Of a stretch of DNA of 64,000 nt, positions 26,257 through 43,950 are shown piece after piece; position 1 is the stretch's first letter, and each line of letters begins with the position of its first letter. The DNA comes from Sandaracinaceae bacterium. Lineage in GTDB: Bacteria > Myxococcota_A > Polyangia > Polyangiales > Sandaracinaceae. A program made the translations under genes and the position numbers. The notes under the pieces are model-generated. The model made no database searches, had not been told where the DNA came from, and saw only the letters and a list, made by a program, of their open reading frames with translations. The stretch covers positions 1 to 64,000 of the forward strand of contig JAHBWG010000016.1 in NCBI GenBank assembly GCA_019637095.1. The letters run 5' to 3'.

Positions 26257-26280
26257 GGTCCGCTCATCGGCGGCCGTGGC

Positions 26281-26295
26281 CGGGGAGTTTCCCCG
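26281..26295. repeat. Short hairpin at Rhs/radical-SAM boundary
   Basis: CGGGGA-GTT-TCCCCG forms a 6-bp stem between the truncated Rhs start and the radical SAM gene. It may mark the island edge or act as a terminator. Confidence 0.3.
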
Positions 26296-26352
26296 ACATC
26301 GACGTGCGGAGGGACCCTGTACACCCGATCAGTCCCTTGGCAGCCTGCTCGG

Positions 26353-27483: not shown

Positions 27484-27494
27484 TCGACAGCTTG
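27484..27494 (-). promoter_or_regulatory. Candidate regulator-binding motif before NtrC-type gene
   Basis: CAAGCTGTCGA (minus strand) lies 2 nt before the ATG of the regulator at 27497. The identical 11-mer occurs about 66 nt upstream of the sigma-54 -24 element of gspC. It is also one arm of an imperfect dyad ACAAGC-N10-GCTTGT. It may be an autoregulatory site. Confidence 0.4.
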
Positions 27495-27496
27495 TC

Positions 27497-28912
27497 ATGG
27501 GGCGTGACATGCTGGCTTCCGAGGACACAGTGACATTTCCGCTTGCCAATGATGCTCACGAGCCGCCGTCGGGGGCCGTGACCGGGCCTGCGACGACGGT
27601 GCTCGTGGTCGACGACGAGCCGAGCAACCTCGAGTCCCTCGAGCGCATCTTCGCGAAGGAGGGCTTCCGGGTGCGCACGGCGGCGAGCGGGCGCGCGGCG
27701 CTCGACGAGTGCCGGCACCACCGGGTCGACGTGGTGCTGACGGACCTGATGATGCCGGGGATGAGCGGGATCGATCTGATCAAGGCGCTCGCGACGGTTG
27801 CGCCGGACGCCGAGGTCGTGGTGATGACGGCCTACGGGACCATCGAGACGGCCGTCGAGGCGATGCGCGAGGGCGCGTACGACTTCGTGGAGAAGCCGCT
27901 CAAGCGCATGCAGATCGTCAAGACGATCCGCAAGGCGGCGGAGCGGCACGCGCTCGTCCGAGAGAACGAGACGCTCAAGAAGGAGCTCAGCGCGCTCAAG
28001 AGCCGGCCCATCGTGGGGAGCTCGCGCGCGCTGCGACACGCGCTCGAGATCGCGCACCAGGCGGCGCCGTCGACCGCGAACGTGCTCGTGCTCGGCGAGA
28101 GCGGCACGGGCAAGGAGCTGCTCGCGCGCGCGATCCACGAGCGCAGCGGGCGCGACGGGCCGTTCGTCGGGGTGAACCTCGCGGCGCTGCCGGAGACGAT
28201 CGTCGAGTCGGAGCTGTTCGGCCACGAGAAGGGCGCGTTCACCGGCGCGTCGGCCAAGCGCGTCGGGCGGATCGCGCAGGCGGACGGCGGGACGCTCTTC
28301 CTCGACGAGATCGGGGAGCTCTCGCCCGCCGTGCAAGTGAAGTTGCTCCGCGTCCTGCAGGAGGGCGAGTACGAGCCGCTCGGCGGGCGCACGCAGACGG
28401 CGAGCTTCCGGCTGATCGCGGCGACCAACCGCGACCTCGCGCGCTCGGTCGAGGAGGGCACGTTCCGCGAGGACCTCTACTACCGCCTGAACGTCATCGC
28501 GATCACGTGCCCGCGCCTCGCCGACCGGCAGGGGGACGTGCCGCTGCTCGTCGATCACTTCCTCGAGCGCTACTGCGCCAAGAACGGCAAGCCGCGGATG
28601 AGCGTCGAGCGCGACGCGCTCGAGCACCTCGCGAGCTATCGCTGGCCGGGCAACGTGCGCGAGCTCGAGAACGTGATCGAGCGCGCGGTGGTGCTCGGCC
28701 GCGGGCCGACCCTCGGCGTCGCGGACCTGCCGCCGCAGATCACGAGCGCCGCGCCGCGCGCGGGCGACCTCACGTTCTCCCTCGGGACGCCGCTCGAGGA
28801 GATCGAGCGGCGCGTGATCAAGGCGACGCTCGATCACACGGGCGGCGACAAGCAGCTCGCGGCGCAGCTGCTCGGGATCTCCGCGCGCACGATCTACCGC
28901 AAGCTGGATTGA
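27497..28912 (+). CDS. NtrC-family sigma-54 response regulator
   Basis: This 471-residue protein has a receiver (Asp83 in VVLTDLMMPGMSG; Lys-Pro in FVEKPLK), a AAA+ domain with LGESGTGKELLARAIH (Walker A), ELFGHEKGAFTGA (the sigma-54 contact loop, intact) and GGTLFLDEIGELS (Walker B), and a C-terminal Fis-type helix-turn-helix (DKQLAAQLLGISARTIYRKLD). It should drive sigma-54 promoters when phosphorylated. No kinase gene is adjacent. The best target in view is the gspC promoter 1.6 kb downstream. Confidence 0.93.
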   Translation: MGRDMLASEDTVTFPLANDAHEPPSGAVTGPATTVLVVDDEPSNLESLERIFAKEGFRVRTAASGRAALDECRHHRVDVVLTDLMMPGMSGIDLIKALATVAPDAEVVVMTAYGTIETAVEAMREGAYDFVEKPLKRMQIVKTIRKAAERHALVRENETLKKELSALKSRPIVGSSRALRHALEIAHQAAPSTANVLVLGESGTGKELLARAIHERSGRDGPFVGVNLAALPETIVESELFGHEKGAFTGASAKRVGRIAQADGGTLFLDEIGELSPAVQVKLLRVLQEGEYEPLGGRTQTASFRLIAATNRDLARSVEEGTFREDLYYRLNVIAITCPRLADRQGDVPLLVDHFLERYCAKNGKPRMSVERDALEHLASYRWPGNVRELENVIERAVVLGRGPTLGVADLPPQITSAAPRAGDLTFSLGTPLEEIERRVIKATLDHTGGDKQLAAQLLGISARTIYRKLD

Positions 28913-28998: not shown

Positions 28999-30396
28999 GT
29001 GGGTGCCCGGCGTGGGGTGTGGTCGGCGACGGCGCTGCTCTTCGCGGCGGCGTGCGCGCCCGACGAGCACCTGCTCGTCGTCGAGCTGCGCTCGGATCTC
29101 GTGCCGGGCGTCGAGATCGATCGCGTGCGCGTGCTCGTCGACGGCGCCGCGCGCGCCGAGCTCGCGCTCGGGCGCGACGACGCGCTCGCGAGCGGTGTGC
29201 GCGTCGCGGAGACCACGCTGCCGGCGGGCGCGCACGACGTGCTCGCGGTCCTCGAGCGCAACGGGAGCGCGGTGCTCGAGCGCGCGGTGCGGGTCGAGGT
29301 GGTGCGCGCGACGAGCGTCACCGTGCTCGCGACGCGCGACTGCCGCGGCGTGCGCTGCCCGGCCGACGACGCGACCGCGAGCGCGTGCCTCGGGGGCGCG
29401 TGCGTGCGGCCGGAGTGCACGCCCGAGACGCCCGAGGCGTGCCCGGCGCCCGCGTGCCGCGCGGACGCCGACTGCGCGCCCGCGGGCGCGTGCGCGGTCG
29501 GCCGGTGCGCCGGGGGCGCGTGCCTCGCGGTCGGCGAGGACGTGTGCGGCCCCGCGCTCTACTGCGATCCCGATCGCGGCTGCGCGGCGCTCCCCGACGA
29601 GTGCGCCCAGTGGGGCCCGTGGCAGGACGCGGCCCCGATCGCCGAGGTCAACGATCCTTCCGGGGACGACTGGGGGCCGTGGATGTCGCCGGATGGACTG
29701 CGGCTCTACTTCTCGTCCGAGCGGGGCGGCGGGCTCGGCGGGCAGGACCTCTACGTGGCCGCGCGCGCGAGCGCGGCGGCGCCGTTCGGCGCGCCGGCGC
29801 GGATCGAAGCGCTGAGCACCGCGCTCGAAGACAGCGACCCCTCGCTCAGCGCCGACGAGCTCGAGATCTTCTGGTACGGCGGCGCGGTGCCCTACACGCT
29901 CTTCACGGCCCGCCGCGCGGATCTCCGCGCGCCGTTCGGCGCCGCGGCGCCCCTCGCGATCGACGATCCGCGGCAGAACGACATCACGCCGGCGGTGCGG
30001 GCCGACGGGCTCGAGCTCTTCTTCTCGCGCGACGGGAACGACAGCGGCTTCGACCTCTTCCGCGCGACCCGCGCCACGCGCGCCGACGCGTTCGGCGACG
30101 TGCAGCACCTGGCCGCGCTGGCGTCGGGCGCGACGGATTGCTGCCCGGGCGCGTCGAGCGATGGATCGACGCTCTACTTCGAAGAGACCGACGGATCACG
30201 CTACGAGATCCGGGTCGCGAGCCGGCCGTCGGCGGACGCCCCGTTCGGAGCGCCGGTCCCCGTCCCCGAGCTGAGCGCCGGACGCGCGGCGGGCGATCCG
30301 CAGCCGTCCGCCGACGGCCGCACGATCGTCTTCGCCGGCCGGCTCGACGGCGGCAGCTGGGACATCTGGCGGGCGTCCCGCGCTTGCGTCCGCTGA
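28999..30396 (+). CDS. PD40/TolB-type propeller lipoprotein
   Basis: This 465-residue protein has a lipoprotein-like signal (ATALLFAAAC). An N-terminal beta domain is followed by a Cys-rich stretch (DADCAPAGACAVG) and, from about residue 215, repeats of the PD40 type: GPWMSPDGLRLYFSSERGG, SDPSLSADELEIFWYG, ITPAVRADGLELFFSRDG, GASSDGSTLYFEE, and PQPSADGRTIVFAGRL. Such propellers usually mediate protein contacts at the envelope. It lies between the NtrC-type regulator and the secretion operon, but no direct role in secretion is shown. Confidence 0.75.
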   Translation: MGARRGVWSATALLFAAACAPDEHLLVVELRSDLVPGVEIDRVRVLVDGAARAELALGRDDALASGVRVAETTLPAGAHDVLAVLERNGSAVLERAVRVEVVRATSVTVLATRDCRGVRCPADDATASACLGGACVRPECTPETPEACPAPACRADADCAPAGACAVGRCAGGACLAVGEDVCGPALYCDPDRGCAALPDECAQWGPWQDAAPIAEVNDPSGDDWGPWMSPDGLRLYFSSERGGGLGGQDLYVAARASAAAPFGAPARIEALSTALEDSDPSLSADELEIFWYGGAVPYTLFTARRADLRAPFGAAAPLAIDDPRQNDITPAVRADGLELFFSRDGNDSGFDLFRATRATRADAFGDVQHLAALASGATDCCPGASSDGSTLYFEETDGSRYEIRVASRPSADAPFGAPVPVPELSAGRAAGDPQPSADGRTIVFAGRLDGGSWDIWRASRACVR

Positions 30397-30428
30397 CAGA
30401 ATGGCGAGAGCCGTGGGGCCGGGCCCGA

Positions 30429-30461
30429 GCGCCCTGCCAAGCTGTCGAAGCCCGAGGGCGC
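30429..30461. terminator. Inverted repeat before the gsp operon
   Basis: GCGCCCT and AGGGCGC form 7-bp arms around 19 nt that include the CAAGCTGTCGA motif. It could end the upstream transcript or shape the enhancer. Confidence 0.3.
30438..30448 (+). promoter_or_regulatory. Candidate enhancer site for the gsp promoter
   Basis: CAAGCTGTCGA matches exactly the 11-mer at 27484-27494 before the NtrC-type gene. It sits about 80-90 bp upstream of the predicted transcription start, the usual distance for NtrC-type activators. Confidence 0.4.
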
Positions 30462-30503: not shown

Positions 30504-30519
30504 AGGCACGCCCGTTGCT
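30504..30519 (+). promoter_or_regulatory. Sigma-54 promoter of the type II secretion operon
   Basis: AGGCACG-N4-TTGCT matches the sigma-54 consensus TGGCACG-N4-TTGCT except for the first base. The GG (-24) and GC (-12) pairs have the correct spacing. Transcription would start near 30530, about 15 nt before the gspC TTG. An NtrC-family activator is encoded two genes upstream. Confidence 0.75.
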
Positions 30520-30544: not shown

Positions 30545-31522
30545 TTGGCCGCTAGCAGTCGACACCTCCGAGTCGCCGCCCTCCTCGTGTTCAGCACGCT
30601 GGGGACGACGGGCGTGCTCGTCGCGCAGGGCGCGACGAAGATGGTCGTCGCGAGCGTGCTGCCGCTCGACCCGGCGCGGGTCGAGCCGCTCGGCACCGTG
30701 CGGCCGACGCCGCCGCAGGACGTCGACGCGACGCCGATCCTGCGCCGCAACATCTTCGACCACGAGACCGGCCGCCTCGACATCGACGAGCCGCCGCCCG
30801 AGGAGATGAACGGGGACGAGGAGGAGCAGCCGGAGCCGGAGCCGCTCGATCCGAACGCGCCCCCGCCGCCGTGCGACGGCAGCATGCGGCTCGTCGGCGC
30901 GTTCGTGCGGATGCGCAGCGAGGAGGACTCGTTCGCCGCGATCACCGACGCGTCCGGCGGCGTGCTGCTCTACCAGCTCGGCATGCAGGTCGACAACCGC
31001 GAGATCGTGCGCATCGAGCGCAACCGCGTGGTGCTGCGGCCGCGCGGCGCGAACCCGTGCTCGCTGAACATGTTCGCGGTCGAGGAGCCGCAGCGCGTCG
31101 CGACCATCGCGCCGGTCGTGCGCCCGGAGCCGGCCGGCGAGGACGTCTCGCCGGAGGGCATGGACGCGGGCGACCTCGAGCGGAGCATCACGAAGGTCAG
31201 CGAGAGCCAGTACACGATCGAGCGCGGGCTCGTCGATCGGCTGCTCGCGAACCAGGCCGCGCTCATGCGCACGGCGCGCGTCATCCCGCACGAGGAAGGC
31301 GGCCGCGTCGTCGGCGTGAAGCTCTACGGCATCCGGCGCAGCAGCCTGCTCGGCCGCCTCGGCATCCAGAACGGCGACATGCTGCGCACGATCAACGGCT
31401 ACGACATGACCGCGCCGGACAGCGCGCTCGAGGCCTACGCGCGGCTGCGCGCCGCGGACCGCATCACCATCAACCTCCAGCGTCGTGGGTCCGACCAGAC
31501 CATCGACTACCAGATCCGGTAG
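30545..31522 (+). CDS. gspC: Type II secretion protein GspC
   Basis: This 325-residue inner-membrane protein couples the cytoplasmic platform to the secretin. It has an N-terminal membrane helix (about residues 9-28), an acidic/Pro-rich stretch (residues 81-108), a homology-region domain (CDGSMRLVGAFVRMRSEEDSFAAI ... GVLLYQLG), and a C-terminal PDZ domain (VIPHEEGGRVVGVKLYGI ... LGIQNGDMLRTINGYDM). The start is a TTG; an ATG just upstream is in another frame and hits a stop. The cluster that follows is gap-free, so gspC heads the operon. Confidence 0.88.
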   Translation: MAASSRHLRVAALLVFSTLGTTGVLVAQGATKMVVASVLPLDPARVEPLGTVRPTPPQDVDATPILRRNIFDHETGRLDIDEPPPEEMNGDEEEQPEPEPLDPNAPPPPCDGSMRLVGAFVRMRSEEDSFAAITDASGGVLLYQLGMQVDNREIVRIERNRVVLRPRGANPCSLNMFAVEEPQRVATIAPVVRPEPAGEDVSPEGMDAGDLERSITKVSESQYTIERGLVDRLLANQAALMRTARVIPHEEGGRVVGVKLYGIRRSSLLGRLGIQNGDMLRTINGYDMTAPDSALEAYARLRAADRITINLQRRGSDQTIDYQIR

Positions 31523-31530
31523 GAGCACCC

Positions 31531-34051
31531 GTGAGGCAACGTTTCGCGATCCCGATCCTCTTGGCCAGCGCCTCCGTGATGCTGTCCGCGATCGGCCTCT
31601 CCTATGCGCAGCCGCCCGGCATGCCGGGGGGGCCGGGCACGCCGCTCGTGCCGCAGCCGCAGGGCGGCGAGGCGCCCGCGCCGGCCGGCAAGCTGCGTCC
31701 GTTCCGCACCGGGCTCGAGGGCCGTCAGGGCGGGCAGGCGCCGCCGGCCGCGCTCGTCGACTTCACGCTCGAGGACGCGGATCTGCCGGACCTCGTGCGG
31801 ATGATCAGCCGCGCGACGGGCAAGCGCTTCATCCTCCCGGGCAAGGCGCGCTCCATCAAGGCGACCGTCGCGAGCGAGCGCCCGGTGACGGCCGCGGCCG
31901 CGTACGCCGCGTTCCTGTCGATCCTCCAGCTCAACGGCATGACCGTCGTGCCGGCCGGGCAGTACCTCAAGATCGTGGAGTCCGCGGGCGCGGAGACGAA
32001 CCCGCTGCCCATCTACACGGACGGCCAGGCCACCCCGGCGGACGACCGGTACATCACGCGGATGCACCGCGTGCAGAACGTCTCGGCGGAGGACGTCGCG
32101 ACGCTGCTCGGTCGCTTCAAGTCGCGCGAGGGCAACGTCACCGCGTACGCGCCGACCAACACGATCATCATCACGGACACCGGCACGAACATCCGCCGCA
32201 TGCTGCGGATCCTCCAGGAGATCGACGTCCCGCGGACGGGCGAGCAGATCTGGGTCGAGCCGATCCACTACGCGAACGCGACGGAGCTCGCCGCGCGATT
32301 GCAAGAGATCTTCCCGAGCGCGGGCGGCGGCGGCGGAGCGCGCCCGCGAGGCGGCGCAGTCCGGGCAGCCCGCGCCGGCCGGTGGTGGCGAGGCCGAGAC
32401 GATCGGGTCGGCCTCCGGCGAGGCGCGGATCACGAACATCCTGCCCGACGAGCGCACGAACTCGCTGATCATCCTGGCGACGGAGCGCGCGTACCTGCGC
32501 ATCCTCGAGGTGATCCGCGCGCTCGACGTGCCGGTCGAGGGCGAGGGCTCCATCCACGTCCACAACCTCCAGTACGCGGACGCCGAGCAGATGGCGACCA
32601 CCCTGCAGAGCCTGATCACGGGCCGCGGCGGCGGCGCCGCGAGCAAGGCGCGGGCGGGCGCGGCCGCGGCCCCGCAAGCCGGCGGCACCGCGGGCGGCGG
32701 GGCGGCCGGGTCGTTCGAGGGGCAGATCAACGTGCAGGCCCACAAGGCCACGAACTCGCTCCTCATCACGTCCTCGCTCCACGACTACCTCTCGCTGCGA
32801 CGCGTGATCGAGCGCCTCGACGCCTCGCCCCGCCAGGTCTTCATCGAGGCGGTCATCATGGAGATGAGCGTGAACCGCTCGTCCCGGCTCGGCCTCGCGT
32901 TCCACGGCGGCGTGCCCTCCCCCGACGACGGCCTCTCGGTCTTCGGCTTCGAGGCGGGTCGCACCGCGACGCCGACGCTGAGCCCCGAGCTGCTCACCGG
33001 CCTCGCGCTCGGCATCCGCGGCCCGGAGATCCCGGAGGCCGCGCAGATCGCCGGCTTCTCGATCCCGAGCTTCGGCATCGTGCTCAACGCGATCGCGAAC
33101 TCGGGCGACGTCAACGTCCTGTCCACGCCGCACATCATCGCGATGGACAACGTGCAGGCGGAGATCACCGTCGGCGCGAACGTGCCGCTGCAGACCTCGG
33201 GCTTCGGCGGGCTCGGCGGCGGCCTGCCCGGCGTCGCGGGGCTCGCCGGCGCGGCGGGCCAGCAGGGCGCGGCCGGCCTCGCGGGCCTCGCCGGGCTCGG
33301 CGGGATGATGGGCATGGGCATGGGCATGATGGGCGTGCAGCGGCAGAACGTCGGCACGACCATCCGCATCACGCCGCACATCAACGACGCCGGCGAGATC
33401 CGCATGGAGATCGAGGAGGAGATCTCCGAGGCCGGCGAGGCGCAGGGCACGCTCGGCGTCATCCCGATCAACCAGCGGATCGCCAAGACGCAGGTCGTCG
33501 TGCGCGACCAGCAGACGATCGTGATCGGCGGCCTGATGCGCGACCGCGTGACGACGAGCGAGGACAAGATCCCGATCCTCGGCGACATCCCGCTGCTCGG
33601 CGTGCTGTTCCGACGCCGCTCGACCTCGACGCAGAAGACCAACCTCCTGTTGTTCCTCACGCCCTACGTCATCCGCTCGCCGGGCGACCTGCGCGCGATC
33701 TTCGAGCGCAAGATGCGCGAGCGGCAGGAGTTCATCGACCGCTTCTTCGTGTTCGGCGACAGCGGCTACACGCCGCCGACCGACTACTCGCGGACCCGCG
33801 GGCTCGTCTCGGAGATCCTCAACGCGATGAGCGCCTCCGAAGAGGAACACCGGCTGATGGAGGAGATGCGGACGCGGCCGCCGCCCGAGCACGTCCCACG
33901 GCCGCCGGTCGGCGCCGGCCCGGACTCGCTCTCCGGCCGCGGCACGATCATCATCGGCCCCGACGGCGAGGAGTCGTTCGGGGACGACGCGGCGTCCATC
34001 GTCGCGCCGGGCGTCGGGACCTCGGTGACCATCCAGGTGCCAGACGAGTAG
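31531..34051 (+). CDS. gspD: Type II secretion secretin GspD, frameshifted
   Basis: GspD forms the outer-membrane channel. From GTG 31531 there is a signal (LLASASVMLSAIGLSYAQ), a Gly/Pro tract, then N0-N1 domains (VDFTLEDADLPDLVRMISRATGK; NVSAEDVATLLGRF). The frame breaks in a GGC tract near 32321-32345. In the +1 frame the gene continues with TITNILPDERTNSLIILAT-like N2/N3 and the secretin domain (VNVLSTPHIIAMDNVQAEI; TIRITPHIN; IVIGGLMRD) to 34051. A Gly-rich insert with GMGMGMMG sits inside the secretin domain. The whole would be about 840 residues. Either an assembly error in the GC repeat or a real lesion; if real, secretion would fail. Confidence 0.88.
32321..32345 (+). other. Frameshift point in gspD (GGC tract)
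   Basis: Homology is in frame 1 up to QEIFPSAGGGGG and in frame 2 from about AREAAQSGQPAPAGG onward. Removing one base in the (GGC)n tract restores a single open gspD. Confidence 0.75.
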
Positions 34052-34055
34052 ACGC

Positions 34056-35969
34056 GTGCAAGTCGAGCAACAGCGCTACGTGGGAGAGATCCTCGTCCGC
34101 CGCGGCGCCCTCGCCGCGGAGCGGATGGAGGAGCTCCTCGTCACGGCGATCGAGAAGGACGCCTCGCTCCTCGACGTGGTGCTCGCCACCCGCGAGACCG
34201 AAGAGGAGAAGGTCGTCCGCGCGCTCGCCGAGGAGGTGGGGATCCCCTTCCTCGAGGAGGAGATCAGGCCCGACGACGTGGCCGCCGAGCTCGTCGACGC
34301 GGTGCCGATCGCGTTCGCCCGCACGCACTGCCTCGTCCCGCTCGTCGACCACGGCGACTACGTCCAGGTCGCCATCTCGAACCCGCTCGACCCGGGCCCG
34401 CTCGACGACCTGCGCGCGCTGCTCGGCAAGCGCGTCGAGCCCGTCGCCGCGCCCGGCGAGAAGATCGAAGACGCGATCAACAGCGTCTACCAGCGCAAGG
34501 CCGACGGCGAGATCGGGCAGGACACCGCCGAAGAGGTCGACGAGATCCAGGACCTGCTCGACGCGACGGACGAGGCGCCGGTCATCCGCTGGGTGAACAA
34601 CCTCTTCTACAACGCGTCGCGCGCGGCCGCGTCGGACATCCACATCGAGCCGGGCGAGCGCGAGGTCATCGTGCGCAACCGGATCGACGGCAAGCTCTTC
34701 CCCGTCAAGACGGCGCCCAAGAGCGTGCACGCGGCGATCGTGAGCCGCGTGAAGATCGAGGCGGGCCTGAACATCGCCGAGAAGCGCCTCCCGCAGGACG
34801 GCCGGATCACGAAGAAGATCCAGGGCCGCCTGATCGACGTGCGCGTCAGCACCATCCCGACCGCGCGCGGGGAGCGCATCGTGATGCGCCTGCTCGACAA
34901 GGAGAAGGTCGTCCTCGACCTGACGGACCTCGGCTACGAGGGCGCGCGGCTCGAGACGCTGCACCACCTGATCACGCGCCCCAACGGCATCCTGCTCGTC
35001 ACCGGCCCGACCGGCTCCGGCAAGACCACGACGCTCTCGGCGTGCCTGCGCCGCATCAACTCGCCCGAGCTCAACATCCTCACCGCCGAGGACCCGGTCG
35101 AGTACGACATCCCGGGCGTCGGCCAGCTCCAGATCCACCCGAAGATCGGGCTCACCTTCGCGTCGGCGCTGCGCGCCTTCCTGCGCCAGGACCCGGACGT
35201 GATCATGGTCGGCGAGATCCGCGACCACGAGACGGCCGAGATCGCGATCCACGCGTCGCTCACCGGCCACCTCGTGCTCTCCACGCTCCACACGAACGAC
35301 GCGGCCGGCGCGGTCACGCGCTTGGTGGAGATGGAGGTGCAGCCCTTCCTGATCTCGTCGAGCGTGCTCGGGGTGATCGCGCAGCGCCTCGTGCGCAAGC
35401 TCTGCCGCACGTGCAAGCAGCCGTACGCGCCGAGCGTGATGGACCTGCGCTCGCTCGGCGTCGACGACGAGCGCTTCGCGGCGCTGCGCCGGCCCGGCGT
35501 GCAGGCGTTCCGCGGCATCGTGCACACGCACGCCGAGGACGCGCCGGCCGCGCCGGAGCGCCTGAGCATCGAGCCATTGCAGCTCCTGACGCCGGAGGAG
35601 CTCACCGAGCTCGAGCTCGGGCTCGACGAGGAGCCGACGCGCATGGTCGCGGCCGACGCGATCACGCCGGCGCTCAAGCCGGGGGGCCTGCCGTCCGACC
35701 TGTCGAGCGCGATCTTCTACCGCGCCATCGGCTGCGACGACTGCGCGCAGACCGGATACAAGGGCCGGCTCGCGATCTCGGAGATGCTCATCATCGACGA
35801 GGCGGTGCGCCGCGACATCCTGAACCACGCGGACGCGGCGACGATCAGCCGCACCGCGATCGCCGGCGGGATGCGCACGCTCCGCGAGGACGGCGCCCGC
35901 CTCGTGCTCTCGGGCATCACGAGCCTCGAGGAGGTCCTCGCGGCCACCCAGGCGGCGGAGATGGAGTAG
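34056..35969 (+). CDS. gspE: Type II secretion ATPase GspE
   Basis: This 637-residue cytoplasmic ATPase powers pseudopilus assembly. The N-terminal MshEN-like domain (residues 1-145) is followed by the Asp/His boxes (SDIHIEP, 193-199), Walker A GPTGSGKTTT (317-326), AEDPVEY and Walker B DPDVIMVGEIRD (379-390). The C-terminal zinc module has CRTC (450-453) and CDDC (560-563), but the 106-residue gap between them is far longer than the ~30 usual in GspE, so an extra domain is inserted there. GTG 34056 follows gspD by 4 nt. Confidence 0.93.
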   Translation: MQVEQQRYVGEILVRRGALAAERMEELLVTAIEKDASLLDVVLATRETEEEKVVRALAEEVGIPFLEEEIRPDDVAAELVDAVPIAFARTHCLVPLVDHGDYVQVAISNPLDPGPLDDLRALLGKRVEPVAAPGEKIEDAINSVYQRKADGEIGQDTAEEVDEIQDLLDATDEAPVIRWVNNLFYNASRAAASDIHIEPGEREVIVRNRIDGKLFPVKTAPKSVHAAIVSRVKIEAGLNIAEKRLPQDGRITKKIQGRLIDVRVSTIPTARGERIVMRLLDKEKVVLDLTDLGYEGARLETLHHLITRPNGILLVTGPTGSGKTTTLSACLRRINSPELNILTAEDPVEYDIPGVGQLQIHPKIGLTFASALRAFLRQDPDVIMVGEIRDHETAEIAIHASLTGHLVLSTLHTNDAAGAVTRLVEMEVQPFLISSSVLGVIAQRLVRKLCRTCKQPYAPSVMDLRSLGVDDERFAALRRPGVQAFRGIVHTHAEDAPAAPERLSIEPLQLLTPEELTELELGLDEEPTRMVAADAITPALKPGGLPSDLSSAIFYRAIGCDDCAQTGYKGRLAISEMLIIDEAVRRDILNHADAATISRTAIAGGMRTLREDGARLVLSGITSLEEVLAATQAAEME

Positions 35970-35977
35970 CGCGCGCC

Positions 35978-37207
35978 ATGGCCGTCTACGTCTGGCGCGG
36001 CATCACGGCCGCCGGAAAAGAGGTCAAGGGCGTCCGCGACGCGGACAACCAGAAGGCCCTGCGCGCGCTCCTGCGCAAGGAGGGGATCTTCGTCACGGAG
36101 ATGCTCGAGGAGGCGCAGGCGCGCGTGAAGAAGGCGCGCGACGTGGACATCGCGCGCTACTTCCGCCGCGTCTCCCCGCTCCAGCTCGCGCTGGCCACCA
36201 AGCAGCTCGCGACGCTGCTGCGGAGCGGCGTGCCGCTCGTCGAGTCCCTCAGCGCGCTCATCGACCAGATGGAGAGCCCCGAGCTGAAGGGCGCGTTCAC
36301 GCAGGCGCGCGACAACGTGAACGAGGGCTCGAGCTTCCACGACGCGCTCGCCAAGCACCCCGCGATCTTCAAGGACCTCTACGTCCACATGGTCGCGGCG
36401 GGCGAGGCGTCGGGCACGCTCGAGCTCGTCCTCAGCCGGCTCGCGGGCTTTCTCGAGAACCAGAGCAAGCTCCAGAACAAGGTGACGGGCGCGCTCGTTT
36501 ATCCGGTCGTGCTCCTCGTGGTCACCTTCCTCACGCTCGCCGTGATGATGACGGTCGTCGTGCCGAAGGTGACGGCGATCTTCCAGTCGTTCCGGCAGGC
36601 GCTGCCCTGGTACACGCGCGCGCTGATCGCGACGAGCGACTTCTTCACGGACTACTGGTGGGCGATGGGGATCGCCATCGTCGGCGGCGCCTTCGGCTTC
36701 CAGCGCTGGCGCAACACGCCCAAGGGCCGCGAGCGCTGGGACCGGCTGATGATCGACCTGCCCGTCCTGGGCAAGCTCAACCTGATGGCGTCGGTGGCGC
36801 GCTTCGCGCGCACGCTCGCGACGCTGCTCACGAGCGGCGTGCCGCTGCTCAACGCGATGGAGATCACGCGCAACGTGCTCGGCAACGTCGCGCTGATGCA
36901 GGTCATCGAGGACGCGCGCAACTCGATCCGCGAGGGCGAGAGCATCGCCGAGCCGCTCAAGCGCTCCGGGCGGCTGCCGCCGATCGTCACGCACATGATC
37001 GCGGTCGGCGAGCGGTCGGGTCAGCTCGAGGAGATGCTCGAGAACGTCGCCGACAGCTACGACCAGCAAGTCGACAACCAGGTCAACGTGATGACCTCGC
37101 TGCTCAACCCGGTGATGATCCTCGTGCTCGCGGGGATCGTCGTCTGCGTGATCTTCCCCATCCTGATGCCGCTGATGCGCATCAACGAGTTCGTGACGGG
37201 CAGGTGA
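35978..37207 (+). CDS. gspF: Type II secretion inner-membrane platform protein GspF
   Basis: This 409-residue protein has the two repeated cytoplasmic helical domains (LALATKQLATLLRSGVPLVESL and VARFARTLATLLTSGVPLLNAM, each followed by GEASGTLE or GERSGQLEEML) and three membrane segments near residues 170-195, 222-240 and 375-398. It anchors GspE and the pseudopilus base. Length is typical. It starts 8 nt after gspE and ends 3 nt before the GspG-like gene. Confidence 0.93.
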   Translation: MAVYVWRGITAAGKEVKGVRDADNQKALRALLRKEGIFVTEMLEEAQARVKKARDVDIARYFRRVSPLQLALATKQLATLLRSGVPLVESLSALIDQMESPELKGAFTQARDNVNEGSSFHDALAKHPAIFKDLYVHMVAAGEASGTLELVLSRLAGFLENQSKLQNKVTGALVYPVVLLVVTFLTLAVMMTVVVPKVTAIFQSFRQALPWYTRALIATSDFFTDYWWAMGIAIVGGAFGFQRWRNTPKGRERWDRLMIDLPVLGKLNLMASVARFARTLATLLTSGVPLLNAMEITRNVLGNVALMQVIEDARNSIREGESIAEPLKRSGRLPPIVTHMIAVGERSGQLEEMLENVADSYDQQVDNQVNVMTSLLNPVMILVLAGIVVCVIFPILMPLMRINEFVTGR

Positions 37208-37210: not shown

Positions 37211-37636
37211 GTGGCCAACCGACGACGGCGGCCCTCGATCGCGCTGCCCTGGGAGCGGCAGGGCGCCTGGCTCCGGACGCTCCTCGCGGGCCGGCGGTGG
37301 CGGCTCGCGCTGGTGGCGGCGGTGATCGTGGCGGCGGTGGTGTCGATGGCGAGCGCGGCGGACGAGCGGCAGCGGACGCGGGAGACGCGCGCGGCGATCG
37401 CGGAGATCAAGCGCTCCATCGCGACGTTCCGCGCGGACTTCGGGCGCTGCCCGCAGAGCTTGCACGAGCTCTTGCACCCGCCCGAGAGCAGGCGACGCTA
37501 TCTGAGGCACGTCCCGGTGGACGGGTGGGGCCGCGCGTTCTGGGTGGAGTGCCCCGGGCGCTACGATCCGGACGACGCCGACGTGGTCTCCGCGGGCCCG
37601 AGCGGCGACTTCCTGAACGACGACAATCTACGCTGA
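37211..37636 (+). CDS. GspG-like protein without a prepilin signal
   Basis: This 141-residue protein has an N-terminal basic segment, one membrane helix (WRLALVAAVIVAAVVSMASA, about residues 30-49) and a C-terminal domain patterned like GspG: TFRADFGRCPQSLHELL, HVPVDGWGRAFWV, YDPDDADVVSAGPSGDF, then Asn-Asp-Asp. It lacks the Gly-hydrophobic-Thr-Leu-x-Glu prepilin peptidase site. It is therefore a membrane-anchored pseudopilin-like domain, not a normal pilin. It lies between gspF and gspG, so it is presumably a dedicated part of this system. Confidence 0.75.
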   Translation: MANRRRRPSIALPWERQGAWLRTLLAGRRWRLALVAAVIVAAVVSMASAADERQRTRETRAAIAEIKRSIATFRADFGRCPQSLHELLHPPESRRRYLRHVPVDGWGRAFWVECPGRYDPDDADVVSAGPSGDFLNDDNLR

Positions 37637-37652
37637 CCGAGCGAGGAGACCG

Positions 37653-38078
37653 ATGAGCAACGAGAACCAGAACCACGACGACCCCACGACGATCCGGCGC
37701 GCCCGGCGGCGCTGGCGCCGCCACCTCCGCCAAGAGGGCATGACCCTCGTCGAGATCATGATCGTCGTCATCATCATGGCGCTGATCGCGACCGGCGTGG
37801 CCGTGGCCGTGCTGCCGCAGCTCGAGTCCGCCAAGGAGGACACGACGCGCACGCGCGCCGCGACCATCCGCTCGGCCGCGACGCTCTTCGTCGCGCAGTC
37901 GAGCCGCTCGCAGTGTCCGAGCGTGTCCGACCTGCGCGACCAGGGCTTCCTGCAGGACGGAACGGACACCACCGACGGCTGGGGCAACGAGTTCACGATC
38001 CGCTGCGAGCGCGGCAGCATCGTGGTCGTGAGCGACCGCTACAACGGCACCGACATCATCGAGGCGACCGGGAACTGA
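37653..38078 (+). CDS. gspG: Major pseudopilin GspG
   Basis: A 141-residue pseudopilin with a 29-residue leader; the prepilin site is QEG|MTLVEIMIVVIIMALI with Glu at +5 (residue 34). The C-terminal domain keeps the family core QLESAKEDTTRTRAATIRSAATLFV and DGWGNEFTIRC but ends at NGTDIIEATGN without the calcium-loop SAGPDG pattern that the preceding gene does have. It forms the pseudopilus shaft. A GAGGAG-type ribosome site lies 6-8 nt before the ATG. Confidence 0.85.
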   Translation: MSNENQNHDDPTTIRRARRRWRRHLRQEGMTLVEIMIVVIIMALIATGVAVAVLPQLESAKEDTTRTRAATIRSAATLFVAQSSRSQCPSVSDLRDQGFLQDGTDTTDGWGNEFTIRCERGSIVVVSDRYNGTDIIEATGN

Positions 38079-38087
38079 CGGGCGGCG

Positions 38088-38813
38088 ATGGGACGGACGA
38101 CGGCGAGCTGGAGACGGCGCCGCGCACGCGCGGGGCTGACGCTGATCGAGATGATGGTCGTCATCTTGATCATCGCGCTCGCGGCCGTCGGCGCCGTCTA
38201 CGGGCTCGGCGCGGTGACGCAAGCCAACTTGCGCTCCGCCGCGATGACCGTCGCCGCCGCCTCGCGCGGCGCGTACGCGCGCTCGATCGCGGAGGGCACG
38301 ACGGTCCGGCTCGTGTTCGAGGTCGGCCAGAGCTCGCTCGCGTTCGAGGAGGCGCACGGGCGCGTGACGCTCACCCGCCTCGACGACGCGACGCGGCGCC
38401 TGATCGAGGACGACGAGGAGGGCGCCGGTGTCGACACCACCGCGGTCGACCCGTGGGCGGCCGCCGAGGCGCGCCTCTCCAAGACGCTGCGCCCGTCGTT
38501 CGGCGCGTCGCCGTTCCAGCAGATCGACAGCCCGCAGTTCCGCCCGCGCGACCTCGGCAACGGGATCCGCATCCTGCGCGTCACCGTCCCGCATGCGCCC
38601 GAGCCGATCGAGGAGGGGCGCGCCACGATCCACTTCTTCCCCGGCGGCCAGACCGAGCACGCGGTGATCTGGATCGGCGACCCGGAGGACCGCGTGTACT
38701 CCGTCGAGCTGCACCCCCTCACCGGCCGCGGCACCGTGTACGACTTCGCCTACGAGCCGGAGCAGCTCCTCGACGACGGCCGCGGCCGCCAGCGCTCGGA
38801 GGTGGAGCGATGA
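38088..38813 (+). CDS. gspH: Minor pseudopilin GspH
   Basis: A 241-residue pseudopilin with prepilin site ARAG|LTLIEMMVVILIIAL (Glu at +5, residue 21). It contains the GspH features of Ala-rich helix (AAMTVAAASRGAYARSIAEG) followed by beta strands (TVRLVFEVGQ; ATIHFFPGGQTEHAVIWIG; YSVELHPLTG). It belongs to the minor pseudopilus tip. The stop overlaps the ATG of gspI (ATGA). Confidence 0.85.
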   Translation: MGRTTASWRRRRARAGLTLIEMMVVILIIALAAVGAVYGLGAVTQANLRSAAMTVAAASRGAYARSIAEGTTVRLVFEVGQSSLAFEEAHGRVTLTRLDDATRRLIEDDEEGAGVDTTAVDPWAAAEARLSKTLRPSFGASPFQQIDSPQFRPRDLGNGIRILRVTVPHAPEPIEEGRATIHFFPGGQTEHAVIWIGDPEDRVYSVELHPLTGRGTVYDFAYEPEQLLDDGRGRQRSEVER

Positions 38814-39589
38814 GCCGGCGATTGTTCGGGGGCTTCACGCTCCTCGAGGTCACGATCGCGGTCGCGATCCTCGGGATCTCGCTCACCGCGATCCTGTCGA
38901 GCCAGGGCGGCGCGGTGCGCACCGGCGCGCGCGCGCGCCACATGACGGCCGCCGCGTTCCTCGCGCGCTGCAAGATGGGAGAGATCGAGGAGCAGTTCGC
39001 GCTCGAGGGCTTCCCCGCGGTCGGCGCGGACGGGCAGGACGCGTGCTGCGAGGGCGGCGAGCAGCCGGGCTTCCGCTGCGAGTGGCTCGTCGAGCGCGTC
39101 GAGCTGCCGGACTCGGTGGATCTCGGCGGCGACAGCGGCGGCGGTGACCCGCTCGGGCTCGCGGGCGGGCTCGGCGGGCTCGGCGGCGCGGGCGGCGCGC
39201 CGGGCACGCCCGGCCCGATGAACCTCGAGAGCGCGCTCTCGGGAGGCGCCGGCGGCGGCGGCATCGGCGGCTACGCGGTGCAGTTCGCCTGGCCGGTGAT
39301 CCGCCCGGTGATCGAGGACCAGGTGCGGCGGGCCACCGTGACGGTGTTCTGGAGCGAGGGCACCTCGGAGCAGTCGTTCGACGTGGTGCAGTACATCGTG
39401 TCGAGCCCGCCCCCGATGGTCGACCCGGCCGCGGTGCCGGGGATGCCGGGCGCGCCGGGGACGCCGGGCGCGCCGGGAACGCCGGGCGCGCCGGGGATGC
39501 CGGGCAGGCCGGGGATGCCCGGGATGCCCGGCGGCCAGGGCATGGTGCCCGGCATCCCGTCCGTTCGCATGCCGGGCCTGCAGAGGTGA
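38810..39589 (+). CDS. gspI: Minor pseudopilin GspI with collagen-like tail
   Basis: This 259-residue protein has prepilin site GG|FTLLEVTIAVAILGIS (Glu13 at +5) and a small core ending around residue 200 (VTVFWSEGTSEQSFDVVQYIV). GspI is normally about 120-130 residues. Extra here are a Gly-rich insert (about 116-152) and a C-terminal tail of ten Gly-X-Pro triplets plus more Gly/Pro/Met (about 211-257). CC and Cys pairs (79-80, 90) may form a disulfide. It starts within the gspH stop. Confidence 0.85.
   Translation: MSRRLFGGFTLLEVTIAVAILGISLTAILSSQGGAVRTGARARHMTAAAFLARCKMGEIEEQFALEGFPAVGADGQDACCEGGEQPGFRCEWLVERVELPDSVDLGGDSGGGDPLGLAGGLGGLGGAGGAPGTPGPMNLESALSGGAGGGGIGGYAVQFAWPVIRPVIEDQVRRATVTVFWSEGTSEQSFDVVQYIVSSPPPMVDPAAVPGMPGAPGTPGAPGTPGAPGMPGRPGMPGMPGGQGMVPGIPSVRMPGLQR
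39440..39538 (+). repeat. Collagen-like Gly-X-Pro repeat coding tract in gspI
   Basis: Near-identical 9-nt units encode GAP, GTP and GMP triplets, ten Gly-X-Pro in a row. The DNA is a GGC/CCG tandem tract prone to slippage. Confidence 0.85.
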
Positions 39590-39590
39590 C

Positions 39591-40292
39591 GTGGTGAGGC
39601 GGCGCATCGTCGGAGGCATGACGCTCGTGGAGGTGATGGTCGCCGTCACCATCCTCGCGATCATCGCGACCGTGACGTTCAGCGGCTTCAACCAGACGAT
39701 GCGCAACCGCGCGTTCATCGAGGAGCAGACGGATCGCGCGCACGTGATCCGCGTCGCGCTCGAGCGGATGGTCGCCGAGCTGTCGATGGCCTACGTGTCG
39801 ATCCACGTGAACCCGAGCCCGCAGCTCCAGATGATGAACACGTGCTTCATCGGCGGGCGCGGCGGCCGCGGCCACCGGATCGACTTCACGAGCTTCAGCC
39901 ACCGCCGCCTCTACCGCGACGCGCACGAGTCCGATCAGAACGAGCTGTCGTACTTCATCACCGACCACCCGGAGGACTCGAGCCGCCGCGTCCTCGTGCG
40001 CCGCATGCAGAACCGGATCGATCGCGACCCGCAGACGGGGGGCGTCCTGTCGATCCTCGTCGAGGACGCCCTCGACCTCGAGTTCGAGTACCTCGACGCG
40101 GTCACCGGCCAGTGGACCGAGACGTGGGACACGCGCGAGATGACGCGCCAGCCGAACCGCCTGCCCATCCAGGTGAAGATCTCGCTCACCGTCGTCGACG
40201 AGCACGCGGAGCGCCAGCAACGCCGCTACGTCACGCGCGCGCAGCCGATGATCACCTGGGGCCTCAACCACTCCGTGTACCAGACGAACTGA
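39591..40292 (+). CDS. gspJ: Minor pseudopilin GspJ
   Basis: A 233-residue pseudopilin with prepilin site GG|MTLVEVMVAVTILAII (Glu14 at +5). The GspJ core follows: RNRAFIEEQTDRAHVIRVALERMVAELSMAYV, then a beta-rich domain (RIDFTSFSHRR, NELSYFITD, VLVRRMQNRID). It forms the pseudopilus tip with GspH, I and K. It starts at a double GTG one nt after gspI. Confidence 0.88.
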   Translation: MVRRRIVGGMTLVEVMVAVTILAIIATVTFSGFNQTMRNRAFIEEQTDRAHVIRVALERMVAELSMAYVSIHVNPSPQLQMMNTCFIGGRGGRGHRIDFTSFSHRRLYRDAHESDQNELSYFITDHPEDSSRRVLVRRMQNRIDRDPQTGGVLSILVEDALDLEFEYLDAVTGQWTETWDTREMTRQPNRLPIQVKISLTVVDEHAERQQRRYVTRAQPMITWGLNHSVYQTN

Positions 40293-40293
40293 C

Positions 40294-41772
40294 GTGACCA
40301 CCGCGACCTCATCGGCGCTGACCCACCTGCCCGCGCTCGCCGGCTCGACGGACTCGCGCGCGCGCGCGCACCGCCCGCTCGCGCATGGAGACGCGGCGCG
40401 CGAGCCGCGCCGCCGGGAGAAGGGGGTCGCCCTGATCGTCGTGTCGATCGCGATCGTGCTGCTCGCCATCGTGCTCGCGGAGATGCACGAGACGACCGCG
40501 ACGTCGTTCGCGCTCGCCACCACGCAGCGCGACCGCGTGCGCGCGGAGTACCTGGCGCGCAGCGGCGTGAACCTGACGCGGATGCTCATCGCCAACGAGC
40601 CCCAGATCCGCGCCGCCGTGCAGCCGCTGATCGGCGCGATGCTCGGCGGCCGCCGGCTGCCACAGCTCCCGATCTGGAGCTTCGCCAACGAGATCCTCGA
40701 GCCCTTCTGCAACTACGAGGCGGCGCAGGCGGAGCGCGCCAACAGCGGGATCGACTTCTCGGCCGCCGCCGGCCTCGGCGACGCGGGCGGCACCTGCGAC
40801 ATCGTCGCGTTCGCGGAGAACAGCAAGCTCAACCTCAACAGCCCCCTGCACATGCCGGGCGACCCGGGCCGCCTCAACGTCGCGATGCAGGTGTTCGCGA
40901 TGACGGGCGGCTACCAGGCGCCGAGCCCCTACGACCCGCTCTTCGAGCGGCGCGACGGCGACGGCCTGATCACGACGCGGCTCGACATCATCAGCGCGCT
41001 CGTCGACTGGTGGGACTACGACACGCAGCGCACGGTGTTCGACCCCGGCGCCGGCCGCATCGACAGCAACAGCGGCGCGGAGGACAGCGCCTACTCGAAC
41101 TTCCGCGACCCCTACGAGGTGAAGAACGCGCCGTTCGACTCGCTCGAGGAGCTGCGCCTGATCCGCGGTGTGGGCGACGACTTCTGGGCGACCTTCGTCG
41201 AGCCCGACCCGGACGACCCGACGACGCGCACGATCACGATCTACGGCTCGGGTCGCGTCCACCTGAACGAGGCGCGCGCCGAGGTGCTGCTCGCGCGGAC
41301 CTGCTCGATCATCCCGATGACCTCGCTCTGCACCGACCCCGGCGAGGCGGCGAAGTTCATCACGGTGATCAACACCGCGCGCGCGCTGGCTCCGATCCCG
41401 TGGTTCAGCAACGTCAACGACTACATCGAGTTCCTGCGCGGAGGCGGCACGGGGATGGCGCTGCGCCCGATGCTCGAGTCGATCGGGCTCGGACAAGGTC
41501 TCTTGCCTGCGCCCGTCCAGATCGACACCGCGGCGCAGCAGCAGATGGGGAACGTCTTCTTGACGAGCGCCGCGATCATCTTCGTGCAGAGCACCGGCCG
41601 CGTCGGCGGCGGCTGCAACGAGGAGATCCCCGAGGAGGAGCGCGGCCCCGGCGGGTGCACCGCCGTGCGCGTGCGCTCGGTGCTGAACTTCGACACGCCG
41701 TGGACGCCGCCTCCGCCCAACGCGGGGATGATGACGCCGCTCGGCATCTTCCACTACTGGAGGCTGGACTAG
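40294..41772 (+). CDS. gspK: Minor pseudopilin GspK
   Basis: This 492-residue protein is the large tip pseudopilin. The prepilin site is REKG|VALIVVSIAIVLLAIV after an unusually long 44-residue leader; +5 is not Glu, which is normal for GspK. The family domain shows YLARSGVNLTRML, the pocket SKLNLNSP, SALVDWWDYD, NAPFDSLEELRLIRGVGDDFW and a helix-hairpin-helix-like RVHLNEARAEVLLA. A late Cys pair may be disulfide-bonded. Confidence 0.9.
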   Translation: MTTATSSALTHLPALAGSTDSRARAHRPLAHGDAAREPRRREKGVALIVVSIAIVLLAIVLAEMHETTATSFALATTQRDRVRAEYLARSGVNLTRMLIANEPQIRAAVQPLIGAMLGGRRLPQLPIWSFANEILEPFCNYEAAQAERANSGIDFSAAAGLGDAGGTCDIVAFAENSKLNLNSPLHMPGDPGRLNVAMQVFAMTGGYQAPSPYDPLFERRDGDGLITTRLDIISALVDWWDYDTQRTVFDPGAGRIDSNSGAEDSAYSNFRDPYEVKNAPFDSLEELRLIRGVGDDFWATFVEPDPDDPTTRTITIYGSGRVHLNEARAEVLLARTCSIIPMTSLCTDPGEAAKFITVINTARALAPIPWFSNVNDYIEFLRGGGTGMALRPMLESIGLGQGLLPAPVQIDTAAQQQMGNVFLTSAAIIFVQSTGRVGGGCNEEIPEEERGPGGCTAVRVRSVLNFDTPWTPPPPNAGMMTPLGIFHYWRLD

Positions 41773-41774
41773 CC

Positions 41775-43319
41775 ATGGCCACGATCCTCGGCCTGGACGT
41801 CGATCCGAAGGCGGTGCGCGCGGTGGTCCTCACGACCTCGCTGCGCCGCTCCGAGATCGCGATGTACGCGTCGGTCGACATCGCGCCCGCGGACACCGAC
41901 GAGGAGCGCGCGGAGAACCGGCACGCGGCGATGCGCACCGTCATGTCGCGCCTCGTGAAGCCGCCGGATCGGATCATCACCGAGCTGAGCGGCGACGAGG
42001 TCTCGATCCGCAAGGTGTCGCTGCCCTCGAAGGCGGCCAAGCGCATCACGGAGCTGCTGCCCTTCGAGCTCGAGGGGCAGGTCCCGTTCGATCCCGCCGA
42101 GGCGGTGCTCGACTACCAGCCGATCGGCGCGAGCGCCGGCGCGCTCCAGCTCTTCGCGGCGGTCGCGCCCAAGGCCCGCGTGGCCGCGCACCTCGCCGCG
42201 ATGCGCGAGGTCGGCGTCGACCCGCGCGAGGTCGCCGTCGGCGCGGTCGCGCTCGACGGGCTCGTGCCGCTCTTGCCCGAGCTCGCGACCCCCGGGCCGC
42301 ACTGCGTGATCGACATCCACCACGAGGGCACGGACGTCTGCATCCTCGACACGGGCGTCGTCGCGTTCGCGCGCACGATCAGCGTGAGCACGGCGGACCT
42401 CGACACCGGCCACGAGGGGCGCCTCCAGCGCGAGCTGCGCCAGACGCTCGCCGCGTACCGGATGGAGGGTGGCAGGGAGCCGGCCGGGTTCTTCGCGTGC
42501 GGAACGATGGCGGTGCGGGCCGGCATCGACGAGTGGCTCACGAGGGTCGTCGGCGCGGAGGTGCGCATCCTGCCGCTGCCCGCGGCGCCGGGCGCGGACG
42601 AGGCAGACCGCCCCGCGTTCGGCCGCGCCGCCGCGCTCGCCGGGCGCGCGCTCGCGCGCGGCAAGCACCTCGACGCGCGCCAAGGCGAGTTCGCCTCGCT
42701 CCAGACGGCGACCGCGATCCGGCGCCACATCCCGCTCGCCGCCGCGTGCCTGCTCGTCCTGCTCGGCGCGTTCATCTTCTCGGGCTACGCGCGCTACTCG
42801 GTCCTCGACGCACGACACGAGCAGCTGCGCGAGCAGCTCGCCGCGGTCACGGACGAGTACCTCGGCGTGCGCGCGACGAGCCCCTCGCAGGCGCTGAGGC
42901 TGCTCGAGCGCGGCGCGCGCGGCGAGGACCCGATGCCCGCGTTCGACGCCTACGACGCGCTCGCCGCGGTGAGCGCCTCGATCCCGGAGTCGGTCGTGCA
43001 CGACGTGCGGCAGCTCCAGATCGACCTCGGCGACGGCGAGGAGACCGGGCGCTTCTCGCTGCGCGGCACCGTCGCGAGCGTCAGCGACACCGAGGTCGTG
43101 CTGCGCGCGCTCCGCGACCACCGCCTGGTGCGCCGCGTGGGCGAGGAGGAGACACGCCTGTCCTGCTTCCGCGAGCTGACCCTCGGCAACACCACCGCGA
43201 CCGCGGACGACCGCCAGGCCTACCGCCTCGAGGGCCACATCCGGTGTCTGCCCGAGAACTGGGAGCCGCCCGAAGAGCCAGCGCGCGACTCGCGCTCCAA
43301 CCGCCGGCGGGGAGGCTGA
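41775..43319 (+). CDS. gspL: Type II secretion protein GspL
   Basis: This 514-residue protein links GspE to the membrane platform. The cytoplasmic part has the actin-like PilM/GspL fold (ILGLDVDPKAVRAVVL; LPFELEGQVPFDPAEAVLDYQ; HCVIDIHHEGTDVCIL). A single membrane helix (HIPLAAACLLVLLGAFIFSGYARY, near residue 330) leads to a periplasmic ferredoxin-like domain. Length is in the family range. gspM follows by 1 nt. Confidence 0.87.
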   Translation: MATILGLDVDPKAVRAVVLTTSLRRSEIAMYASVDIAPADTDEERAENRHAAMRTVMSRLVKPPDRIITELSGDEVSIRKVSLPSKAAKRITELLPFELEGQVPFDPAEAVLDYQPIGASAGALQLFAAVAPKARVAAHLAAMREVGVDPREVAVGAVALDGLVPLLPELATPGPHCVIDIHHEGTDVCILDTGVVAFARTISVSTADLDTGHEGRLQRELRQTLAAYRMEGGREPAGFFACGTMAVRAGIDEWLTRVVGAEVRILPLPAAPGADEADRPAFGRAAALAGRALARGKHLDARQGEFASLQTATAIRRHIPLAAACLLVLLGAFIFSGYARYSVLDARHEQLREQLAAVTDEYLGVRATSPSQALRLLERGARGEDPMPAFDAYDALAAVSASIPESVVHDVRQLQIDLGDGEETGRFSLRGTVASVSDTEVVLRALRDHRLVRRVGEEETRLSCFRELTLGNTTATADDRQAYRLEGHIRCLPENWEPPEEPARDSRSNRRRGG

Positions 43320-43320
43320 C

Positions 43321-43950
43321 GTGGACCGCATCCGCGCACTGTTCGCCGGCCTCGGCGCCTACTGGACCAACCTGACCGACCGCGAGCGGCTCCTGCTCGG
43401 GATCCTGGGCGCGGTCGCCGGCGCGCTCGTCGTGCTGCTGCCCGTGTACCTGCTGTCGACGTCGATCCGCGACCTCGAGCGCGACAACGAGGAGATCACG
43501 ACGGCGCTGCGCACCATCTCCCGCTCGCGCTCGCTCCTCGCGGCGCAGCGCGCCGAGCGCGCGGCGGCCGACCAGCGCTACGCGCGGCAGGCGCCCTCGC
43601 TCGGCTCGTTCCTCGAGGCCAAGGCGGGCGAGCAGCAGGGCCTCGCGATCTCCGACGTCCAGCACGAGCCGGATCGCGAGGTGAACGGCTACCGCCTGCG
43701 CCTCACGCGCGCGCGCTTCCAGGGCACGGGCCTGCGGCCCGCGATCCGCTTGCTCGCCTCCATCAAGAACAGCCGCTACCCCGTGGCGATCGAGCGCATC
43801 CACGTCGATCACCAGCTCGCGGGCGATCGGTACAACTTCCAGATCGGGATCGTCGCGTTCGATCGCCCGGAGGCCCAGGCGGCCACGGGCGCGGACGCCG
43901 GCGTCCCCTCGAGCGCGGGCCCGGGCCGCGCGGGGCCGGCGGCGCCATGA
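43321..43950 (+). CDS. gspM: Type II secretion protein GspM
   Basis: A 209-residue bitopic protein: an amphipathic start (YWTNLTDRERLLLGILG), a membrane helix near residues 28-48, a coiled coil (LERDNEEITTALRTISRSRSLLAAQ) and a periplasmic ferredoxin-like domain. GspM partners GspL. Its end overlaps the gspN ATG by four bases. Confidence 0.82.
   Translation: MDRIRALFAGLGAYWTNLTDRERLLLGILGAVAGALVVLLPVYLLSTSIRDLERDNEEITTALRTISRSRSLLAAQRAERAAADQRYARQAPSLGSFLEAKAGEQQGLAISDVQHEPDREVNGYRLRLTRARFQGTGLRPAIRLLASIKNSRYPVAIERIHVDHQLAGDRYNFQIGIVAFDRPEAQAATGADAGVPSSAGPGRAGPAAP

What the first reader, a model, noticed from the sequence alone, without database searches (positions are those of the whole stretch)
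30504..30519. Sigma-54 promoter drives the whole type II secretion operon
AGGCACG-N4-TTGCT sits 26 nt before the gspC start with correct -24/-12 spacing. An NtrC-type activator with intact GAFTGA is encoded just upstream. Sigma-54 control of a complete gsp cluster would tie secretion to a signal, for example development or starvation.
Basis: partly seen in the sequence, partly recalled or inferred. Interest (0 to 1): 0.62.

Follow-up and report, generated by a model that had tools for sequence, protein, structure and literature searches.

The report
Conserved sigma-54 switch for protein secretion
The predicted sigma-54 start site in front of the protein-secretion genes passes every sequence test available, carries a matching pair of activator-binding sites, and belongs to an old circuit found across the myxobacterial phylum that also seems to control a secreted surface protein and whose Myxococcus regulator (Nla4) has so far been explained only through the starvation response.

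Summary
AGGCACG-N4-TTGCT lies at 30504-30519, 25 nt before the gspC start. A match of this quality is not above chance genome-wide (47 hits, 72 for the reversed control), so the motif alone proves nothing. Conservation does: of 135 non-redundant gspC loci from Myxococcota, 105 have a -24/-12 site with an upstream palindrome TGNCA-N3-TGNCA, against 2 on the reverse strand and 0.2 expected by shuffling. The NtrC-type regulator (27497-28912) is adjacent to gspC in most relatives, and the same palindrome is clustered at its own start. Second gspC copies in one genus lack both regulator and site. The sites recur before a MXAN_2561-like MYXO-CTERM protein and its beta-barrel partner. In M. xanthus the gene at this position is nla4 (MXAN2516; gspD is MXAN2514). 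Precedents exist: Nla28 binds a type II secretion promoter, and sigma-54 sites are reported enriched at such genes in Myxococcia. No expression data; the signal is unknown.

The parts
30504..30519 (+). sigma-54 -24/-12 promoter of gspC (AGGCACG-N4-TTGCT), predicted transcription start about 30530
30394..30406 (+). distal activator site TGACAGAATGGCG (7 of 8 to TGNCA-N3-TGNCA); its first three bases are the stop codon of the upstream gene
30435..30447 (+). proximal activator site TGCCAAGCTGTCG (7 of 8), 41 bp from the distal one
27497..28912 (+). NtrC-type response regulator (receiver, AAA+ with GAFTGA, Fis-type HTH); the conserved part begins near residue 33, so the true start may lie downstream of 27497
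27485..27497 (+). palindrome CGACAGCTTGTCA at the regulator's own start (candidate autoregulatory site 1)
27505..27517 (+). palindrome TGACATGCTGGCT (candidate autoregulatory site 2)
27523..27535 (+). palindrome GGACACAGTGACA (candidate autoregulatory site 3)
28999..30396 (+). gene between regulator and gspC, no Pfam family in the other frame tested and only weak NCBIfam matches; absent at this place in the relatives compared
   Evidence: start inferred by eye
30545..31522 (+). gspC (TTG start), first gene of the operon
31531..34051 (+). gspD secretin, frameshifted between 32319 and 32363 in this assembly
34056..35969 (+). gspE ATPase
35966..37207 (+). gspF (start approximate)
37211..40292 (+). 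gspG (37211-37636), two or three pseudopilins with N-methylation motif, gspJ (39591-40292)
40294..44915 (+). gspK (40294-41772), gspL (about 41769-43319), gspM (43321-43950), gene at the gspN position (43947-44915, no Pfam match)

Best explanation
The gspC-gspN operon is transcribed from a sigma-54 promoter at 30504-30519. The NtrC-type response regulator encoded upstream binds as dimers to two palindromes, TGNCA-N3-TGNCA, 41 bp apart at 30394 and 30435. On activation it assembles into a ring, contacts the sigma-54 holoenzyme by looping on the same face of the helix, and opens the promoter. The same protein binds three sites over its own start and probably limits its own synthesis. In this and related genomes it also activates a second promoter, before a MYXO-CTERM-like surface protein of the MXAN_2561 kind and its MXAN_2562-type beta-barrel partner, so that the secretion machine and a probable client are switched together. 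Shown by sequence: sites, spacing, conservation, gene neighbourhood, domains. Inferred: binding, phosphorylation, activation, autoregulation, client relation. Unknown: sensor kinase and signal.
For: Conserved -24/-12 plus palindrome before gspC in 105 of 135 non-redundant loci, reverse strand 2, shuffled 0.2; palindromes 84 against 2.4 expected in 48 loci; spacing 40-42 bp and helical phasing to the promoter; pair pattern 0-2 per genome, mainly at gspC, in 28 genomes; regulator adjacent and codirectional in most loci; regulator from a distant family finds this one as best match, 513 against 415 bits; same palindrome clustered at the regulator's start, 58 against 1.3 expected; five second gspC copies of one genus lack both regulator and site; second target in 19 of 30 loci, reverse 0; no sigma-70-like promoter found between 30350 and 30600; gsp genes contiguous with almost no gaps.
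Against: No transcript, binding or mutant data. The first base of the -24 element is A instead of T. Loci L337-L339 of other families in the class have the regulator next to gspC but no recognisable site, and 30 of 135 loci lack the composite. In families f5 and f7 the site is kept although the regulator is not adjacent or is inverted. gspD is frameshifted in this assembly.
Confidence: 0.85

Rival explanations
1. The promoter is sigma-54 dependent, but another of the many enhancer-binding proteins of the genome (for example an Nla28-type protein) is the main activator, and the adjacent NtrC gene is only a neighbour.
For: The genome encodes dozens of homologues; in M. xanthus Nla28 binds a promoter of a type II secretion operon starting at MXAN2511 (PMC9765219); some loci keep the site without an adjacent regulator.
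Against: The reported Nla28 half-site CT(C/G)CG(C/G)AG does not resemble TGNCA-N3-TGNCA; the palindrome also sits at the adjacent regulator's own start; regulator and site are absent together at second gspC copies.
Confidence: 0.1
2. The main gsp promoter is of another sigma class, and the sigma-54 site only adds a conditional boost or acts by occlusion.
For: Only a sigma-70 consensus scan was possible, and other promoter types are not covered by it; type II secretion is often constitutive (general knowledge).
Against: No sigma-70-like site between 30350 and 30600; information in 131 aligned promoters is confined to the -24 and -12 elements.
Confidence: 0.12
3. The site is a chance match to the consensus.
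For: One-mismatch hits are no more frequent than the reversed pattern genome-wide.
Against: Conservation at the same place in 105 of 135 loci, against 0.2 expected by shuffling.
Confidence: 0.01

Closest known systems
M. xanthus Nla4 (MXAN2516), NtrC-type activator
   Same: Same protein class and same place: nla4 is MXAN2516 (PMC2875238) and the secretin gene gspD is MXAN2514 (PMC3222651), as the regulator precedes gspC and gspD here.
   Different: Nla4 is described as acting on relA, the stringent response and nla6 (PMC4048283; PMC7910581), not on secretion.
Nla28 control of the MXAN2511 type II secretion operon in M. xanthus
   Same: A sigma-54 promoter and an enhancer-binding protein at type II secretion genes of a myxobacterium (PMC9765219).
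   Different: Other promoter (a 10-gene operon starting at MXAN2511, not gspC), other activator and other half-site, CT(C/G)CG(C/G)AG.
Survey of sigma-54 regulons (PMC12316311)
   Same: Reports sigma-54 sites enriched at type II secretion gene families in Myxococcia, less in Polyangia.
   Different: In the passages read it names no activator, enhancer site or second target.
MYXO-CTERM sorting and myxosortase
   Same: MYXO-CTERM proteins depend on type II secretion for surface display (PMC11980579); the second target here has a MYXO-CTERM-like tail.
   Different: Common transcriptional control of the secretion machine and such a protein was not mentioned in the passages read.

Membership tests
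sigma-54 (RpoN) promoter | GG at -24 and GC at -12 with the consensus spacing TGGCACG-N4-TTGCW | tested here: met
   15 of 16 pattern positions including both cores
sigma-54 (RpoN) promoter | site conserved at the same place in relatives | tested here: met
   105 of 135 non-redundant loci with palindrome; 48 of 61 loci of the order within two mismatches
sigma-54 (RpoN) promoter | transcription from it requires RpoN | not testable with these tools
   rpoN gene present; no expression data
NtrC-type enhancer-binding protein | sigma-54 activation domain with Walker A and GAFTGA | tested here: met
   PF00158 E 7e-66; GESGTGKE and GAFTGA at residues 200 and 246
NtrC-type enhancer-binding protein | receiver domain and Fis-type DNA-binding domain | tested here: met
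   PF00072 E 2.5e-32 and PF02954 E 1.3e-14
NtrC-type enhancer-binding protein | dyad-symmetric binding sites, usually two or more, upstream of the promoter | tested here: met
   sites found as sequence, paired 41 bp apart; binding itself not testable
Orthologue of M. xanthus Nla4 | gene position beside gspC/gspD | tested here: met
   nla4 = MXAN2516, gspD = MXAN2514; same order here
Orthologue of M. xanthus Nla4 | reciprocal best sequence match with Nla4 | not tested
   no Myxococcus genome was found among 377 searched; a gspC-adjacent regulator of another family does match this one best
Type II secretion operon | gspC to gspM in order on one strand | tested here: met
   GspC, D, E, F, G, J, K, L (weak), M recognised; gspD frameshifted in the assembly
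MXAN_2561 family, MYXO-CTERM anchored (second target) | score above the family cut-off | tested here: not met
   NF045522 16.6 of 150 bits, TIGR03901 18.1 of 20 bits; the neighbouring protein meets NF040596 (MXAN_2562), 122.7 of 100 bits. Described as like it, not as a member

The most novel reading that the evidence does not exclude
A dedicated secretion regulon ancestral to Myxococcota: the Nla4-type activator directly controls the type II secretion operon and a co-regulated MYXO-CTERM-like surface protein and beta-barrel pair through TGNCA-N3-TGNCA enhancers, so that the growth, ppGpp and development defects of nla4 mutants would be at least partly downstream of failed secretion.
Probability: 0.5. 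Interest if true: 0.75.

Novelty: new member of a known kind. Interest (0 to 1): 0.62.

Why it matters
It names the enhancer, the activator and two target operons of a sigma-54 circuit conserved over a phylum known for predation and multicellularity, and gives a directly testable role to Nla4, whose mutants grow and develop poorly. It would make type II secretion in myxobacteria a switched rather than a housekeeping function, and links the machine to a specific surface protein through common control.

Tried and rejected
A looser composite pattern gave mostly background and was used only where it agreed with gspC or MXAN_2561-like genes. A first best-match search used wrong coordinates and returned nothing; it was repeated correctly. 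My first translation of the gene between regulator and gspC was in the wrong frame, so its absence in relatives rests on the regulator lying directly before gspC there, not on that search. An attempt to recognise Myxococcus through its encapsulin found no close match among 377 genomes. Chance match: rejected by conservation. My first count of gspC loci (131 of 167) contained overlaps between collections; the de-duplicated count is 105 of 135. Two primary papers on Nla4 and its cascade are not in the library.

Full report
What is there. The window lies in a 9.25 Mb draft genome related to Sandaracinus, Polyangium and Sorangium. At 30504-30519 stands AGGCACGCCCGTTGCT, one mismatch from TGGCACG-N4-TTGCW with GG and GC cores intact. 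gspC starts with TTG at 30545, and gspD, E, F, G, further pseudopilins, J, K, L, M and a gene at the gspN position follow with almost no gaps up to 44915. The NtrC-type protein at 27497-28912 has a receiver, an AAA+ domain with GESGTGKE and GAFTGA, and a Fis-type DNA-binding domain. The genome has one rpoN.

Chance. Taken alone the match is worth little: 47 one-mismatch hits in the genome against 72 for the reversed control pattern, and in the window no more two-mismatch hits than expected.

Conservation. Upstream regions of gspC were read from genomes of the same order, from 39 further loci drawn mostly from the rest of the phylum and from loci with organism names. In the order, 48 of 61 loci have a -24/-12 site within two mismatches, while the reverse strand usually offers nothing better than four. 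Over all sources, after removal of overlaps, 105 of 135 loci have the site with at least one palindrome TGNCA-N3-TGNCA upstream, against 2 on the reverse strand and 0.2 in shuffled sequence. Among 131 aligned promoters the strong information is confined to GGCACG and TTGC (the GG core was a condition of selection). Named examples are Polyangium fumosum DSM 14668 and Sorangium cellulosum So0157-2.

The enhancers. The palindromes were found by lining up the promoters. There are 84 in 48 loci against 2.4 expected. Where paired they are mostly 40-42 bp apart, four turns of the helix. The distance of the proximal site to the promoter varies between loci in steps of about a helical turn (clusters near 68, 78, 88 and 99 bp): R 0.57 at 10.5 bp on 36 non-redundant distance patterns, with none of 5000 random sets as phased over 9.5-11.5 bp, and R 0.65 on 49 loci. 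Related sequences are not independent, so these numbers are descriptive. In the window the pair is at 30394 and 30435; the first three bases of the distal site are the stop codon of the gene before it. This is the only such composite in the 64 kb window on either strand. Genome-wide in 28 relatives the pair pattern occurs at 0-2 places in most genomes, mainly at gspC, and almost never in the control.

The activator. A regulator about 65-80% identical to the window's lies upstream of gspC on the same strand in most loci of the order, and one 55-60% identical in several distant families. The regulator beside gspC in a distant family finds 27602-28906 as best match in this genome, 513 bits against 415 for the next of dozens of homologues. 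The same palindrome is clustered, 18-20 bp apart, over the regulator's own start: 58 copies against 1.3 expected in 34 loci, three in the window at 27485, 27505 and 27523. Five second gspC copies in one genus have neither the regulator nor the site. Together these point to this protein as the one that binds. In the window a gene at about 28999-30396 separates regulator and promoter; in most relatives the regulator is directly before gspC. Both palindromes are intact.

A second target. The pair pattern also occurs at G000:C142:28681 in the same genome, followed by a sigma-54-like site and a gene between asd and truA. Its product looks exported and has a MYXO-CTERM-like tail (TIGR03901 18.1 bits, cut-off 20; MXAN_2561 family far below cut-off), and its neighbour is an MXAN_2562-family beta-barrel (122.7 bits, cut-off 100). 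In relatives 19 of 30 such loci have palindrome plus sigma-54 site upstream, none on the reverse strand, 0.02 expected. MYXO-CTERM proteins need type II secretion to reach the surface (PMC11980579). A second gspC of this genome (C79) also has one palindrome and a possible sigma-54 site.

What is known. In M. xanthus nla4 is MXAN2516 (PMC2875238) and gspD is MXAN2514 (PMC3222651), so the activator at this position is by all appearance Nla4. Nla4 is described as activating relA and the stringent response; mutants grow and develop poorly (PMC4048283, PMC7910581). Nla28 binds a promoter fragment of a 10-gene type II secretion operon starting at MXAN2511 (PMC9765219), and a survey reports sigma-54 sites enriched at type II secretion genes in Myxococcia (PMC12316311). 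Sigma-54 control of this machine in myxobacteria is thus partly anticipated. The gspC promoter with its enhancers, the assignment of the activator, the autoregulatory sites and the second target were not found in the library searched.

Limits. Nothing was measured. Loci L337-L339 of other families in the class have the regulator without a recognisable site. The sequence of Nla4 itself was not available. The sensor kinase and signal are unknown. gspD is frameshifted in this assembly between 32319 and 32363, in a GC-rich repeat, which may be an assembly error.

Noticed in passing
window 32319-32363: gspD is split by a frameshift in a GGC-rich stretch; may be an assembly error or a real lesion.
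   Followed up: partly
G000:C79:31661-32552 (L160): A second gspC in the same genome has a palindrome TGCCAAGTTGACG and a possible sigma-54 site CGGCACGCGAGTTGCG just before it.
   Followed up: partly
window 30394-30396; L064, L084, L086: The distal palindrome begins with the TGA stop codon of the gene before it, both where that gene is the regulator (relatives) and where another gene has come between (window).
   Followed up: no
gspC promoters of families f5, f7, f12 (L091-L118): The -12 element is mostly TCGC or CCGC instead of TTGC while the -24 element stays TGGCAC.
   Followed up: no
window 23806-27399 (3' third): A radical SAM protein region lies upstream of the regulator and has counterparts at a similar place in several relatives; its annotated start is probably far too early.
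   Followed up: no
window 52009-53157 (-): A second NtrC-type regulator region in the same window, not studied.
   Followed up: no
L076, L078, L079, L081 (genus g9), about 80-100 bp before the regulator: TGGCYCG-N4-ATTGCA, a possible sigma-54 promoter of the regulator itself, with palindromes downstream of it.
   Followed up: no
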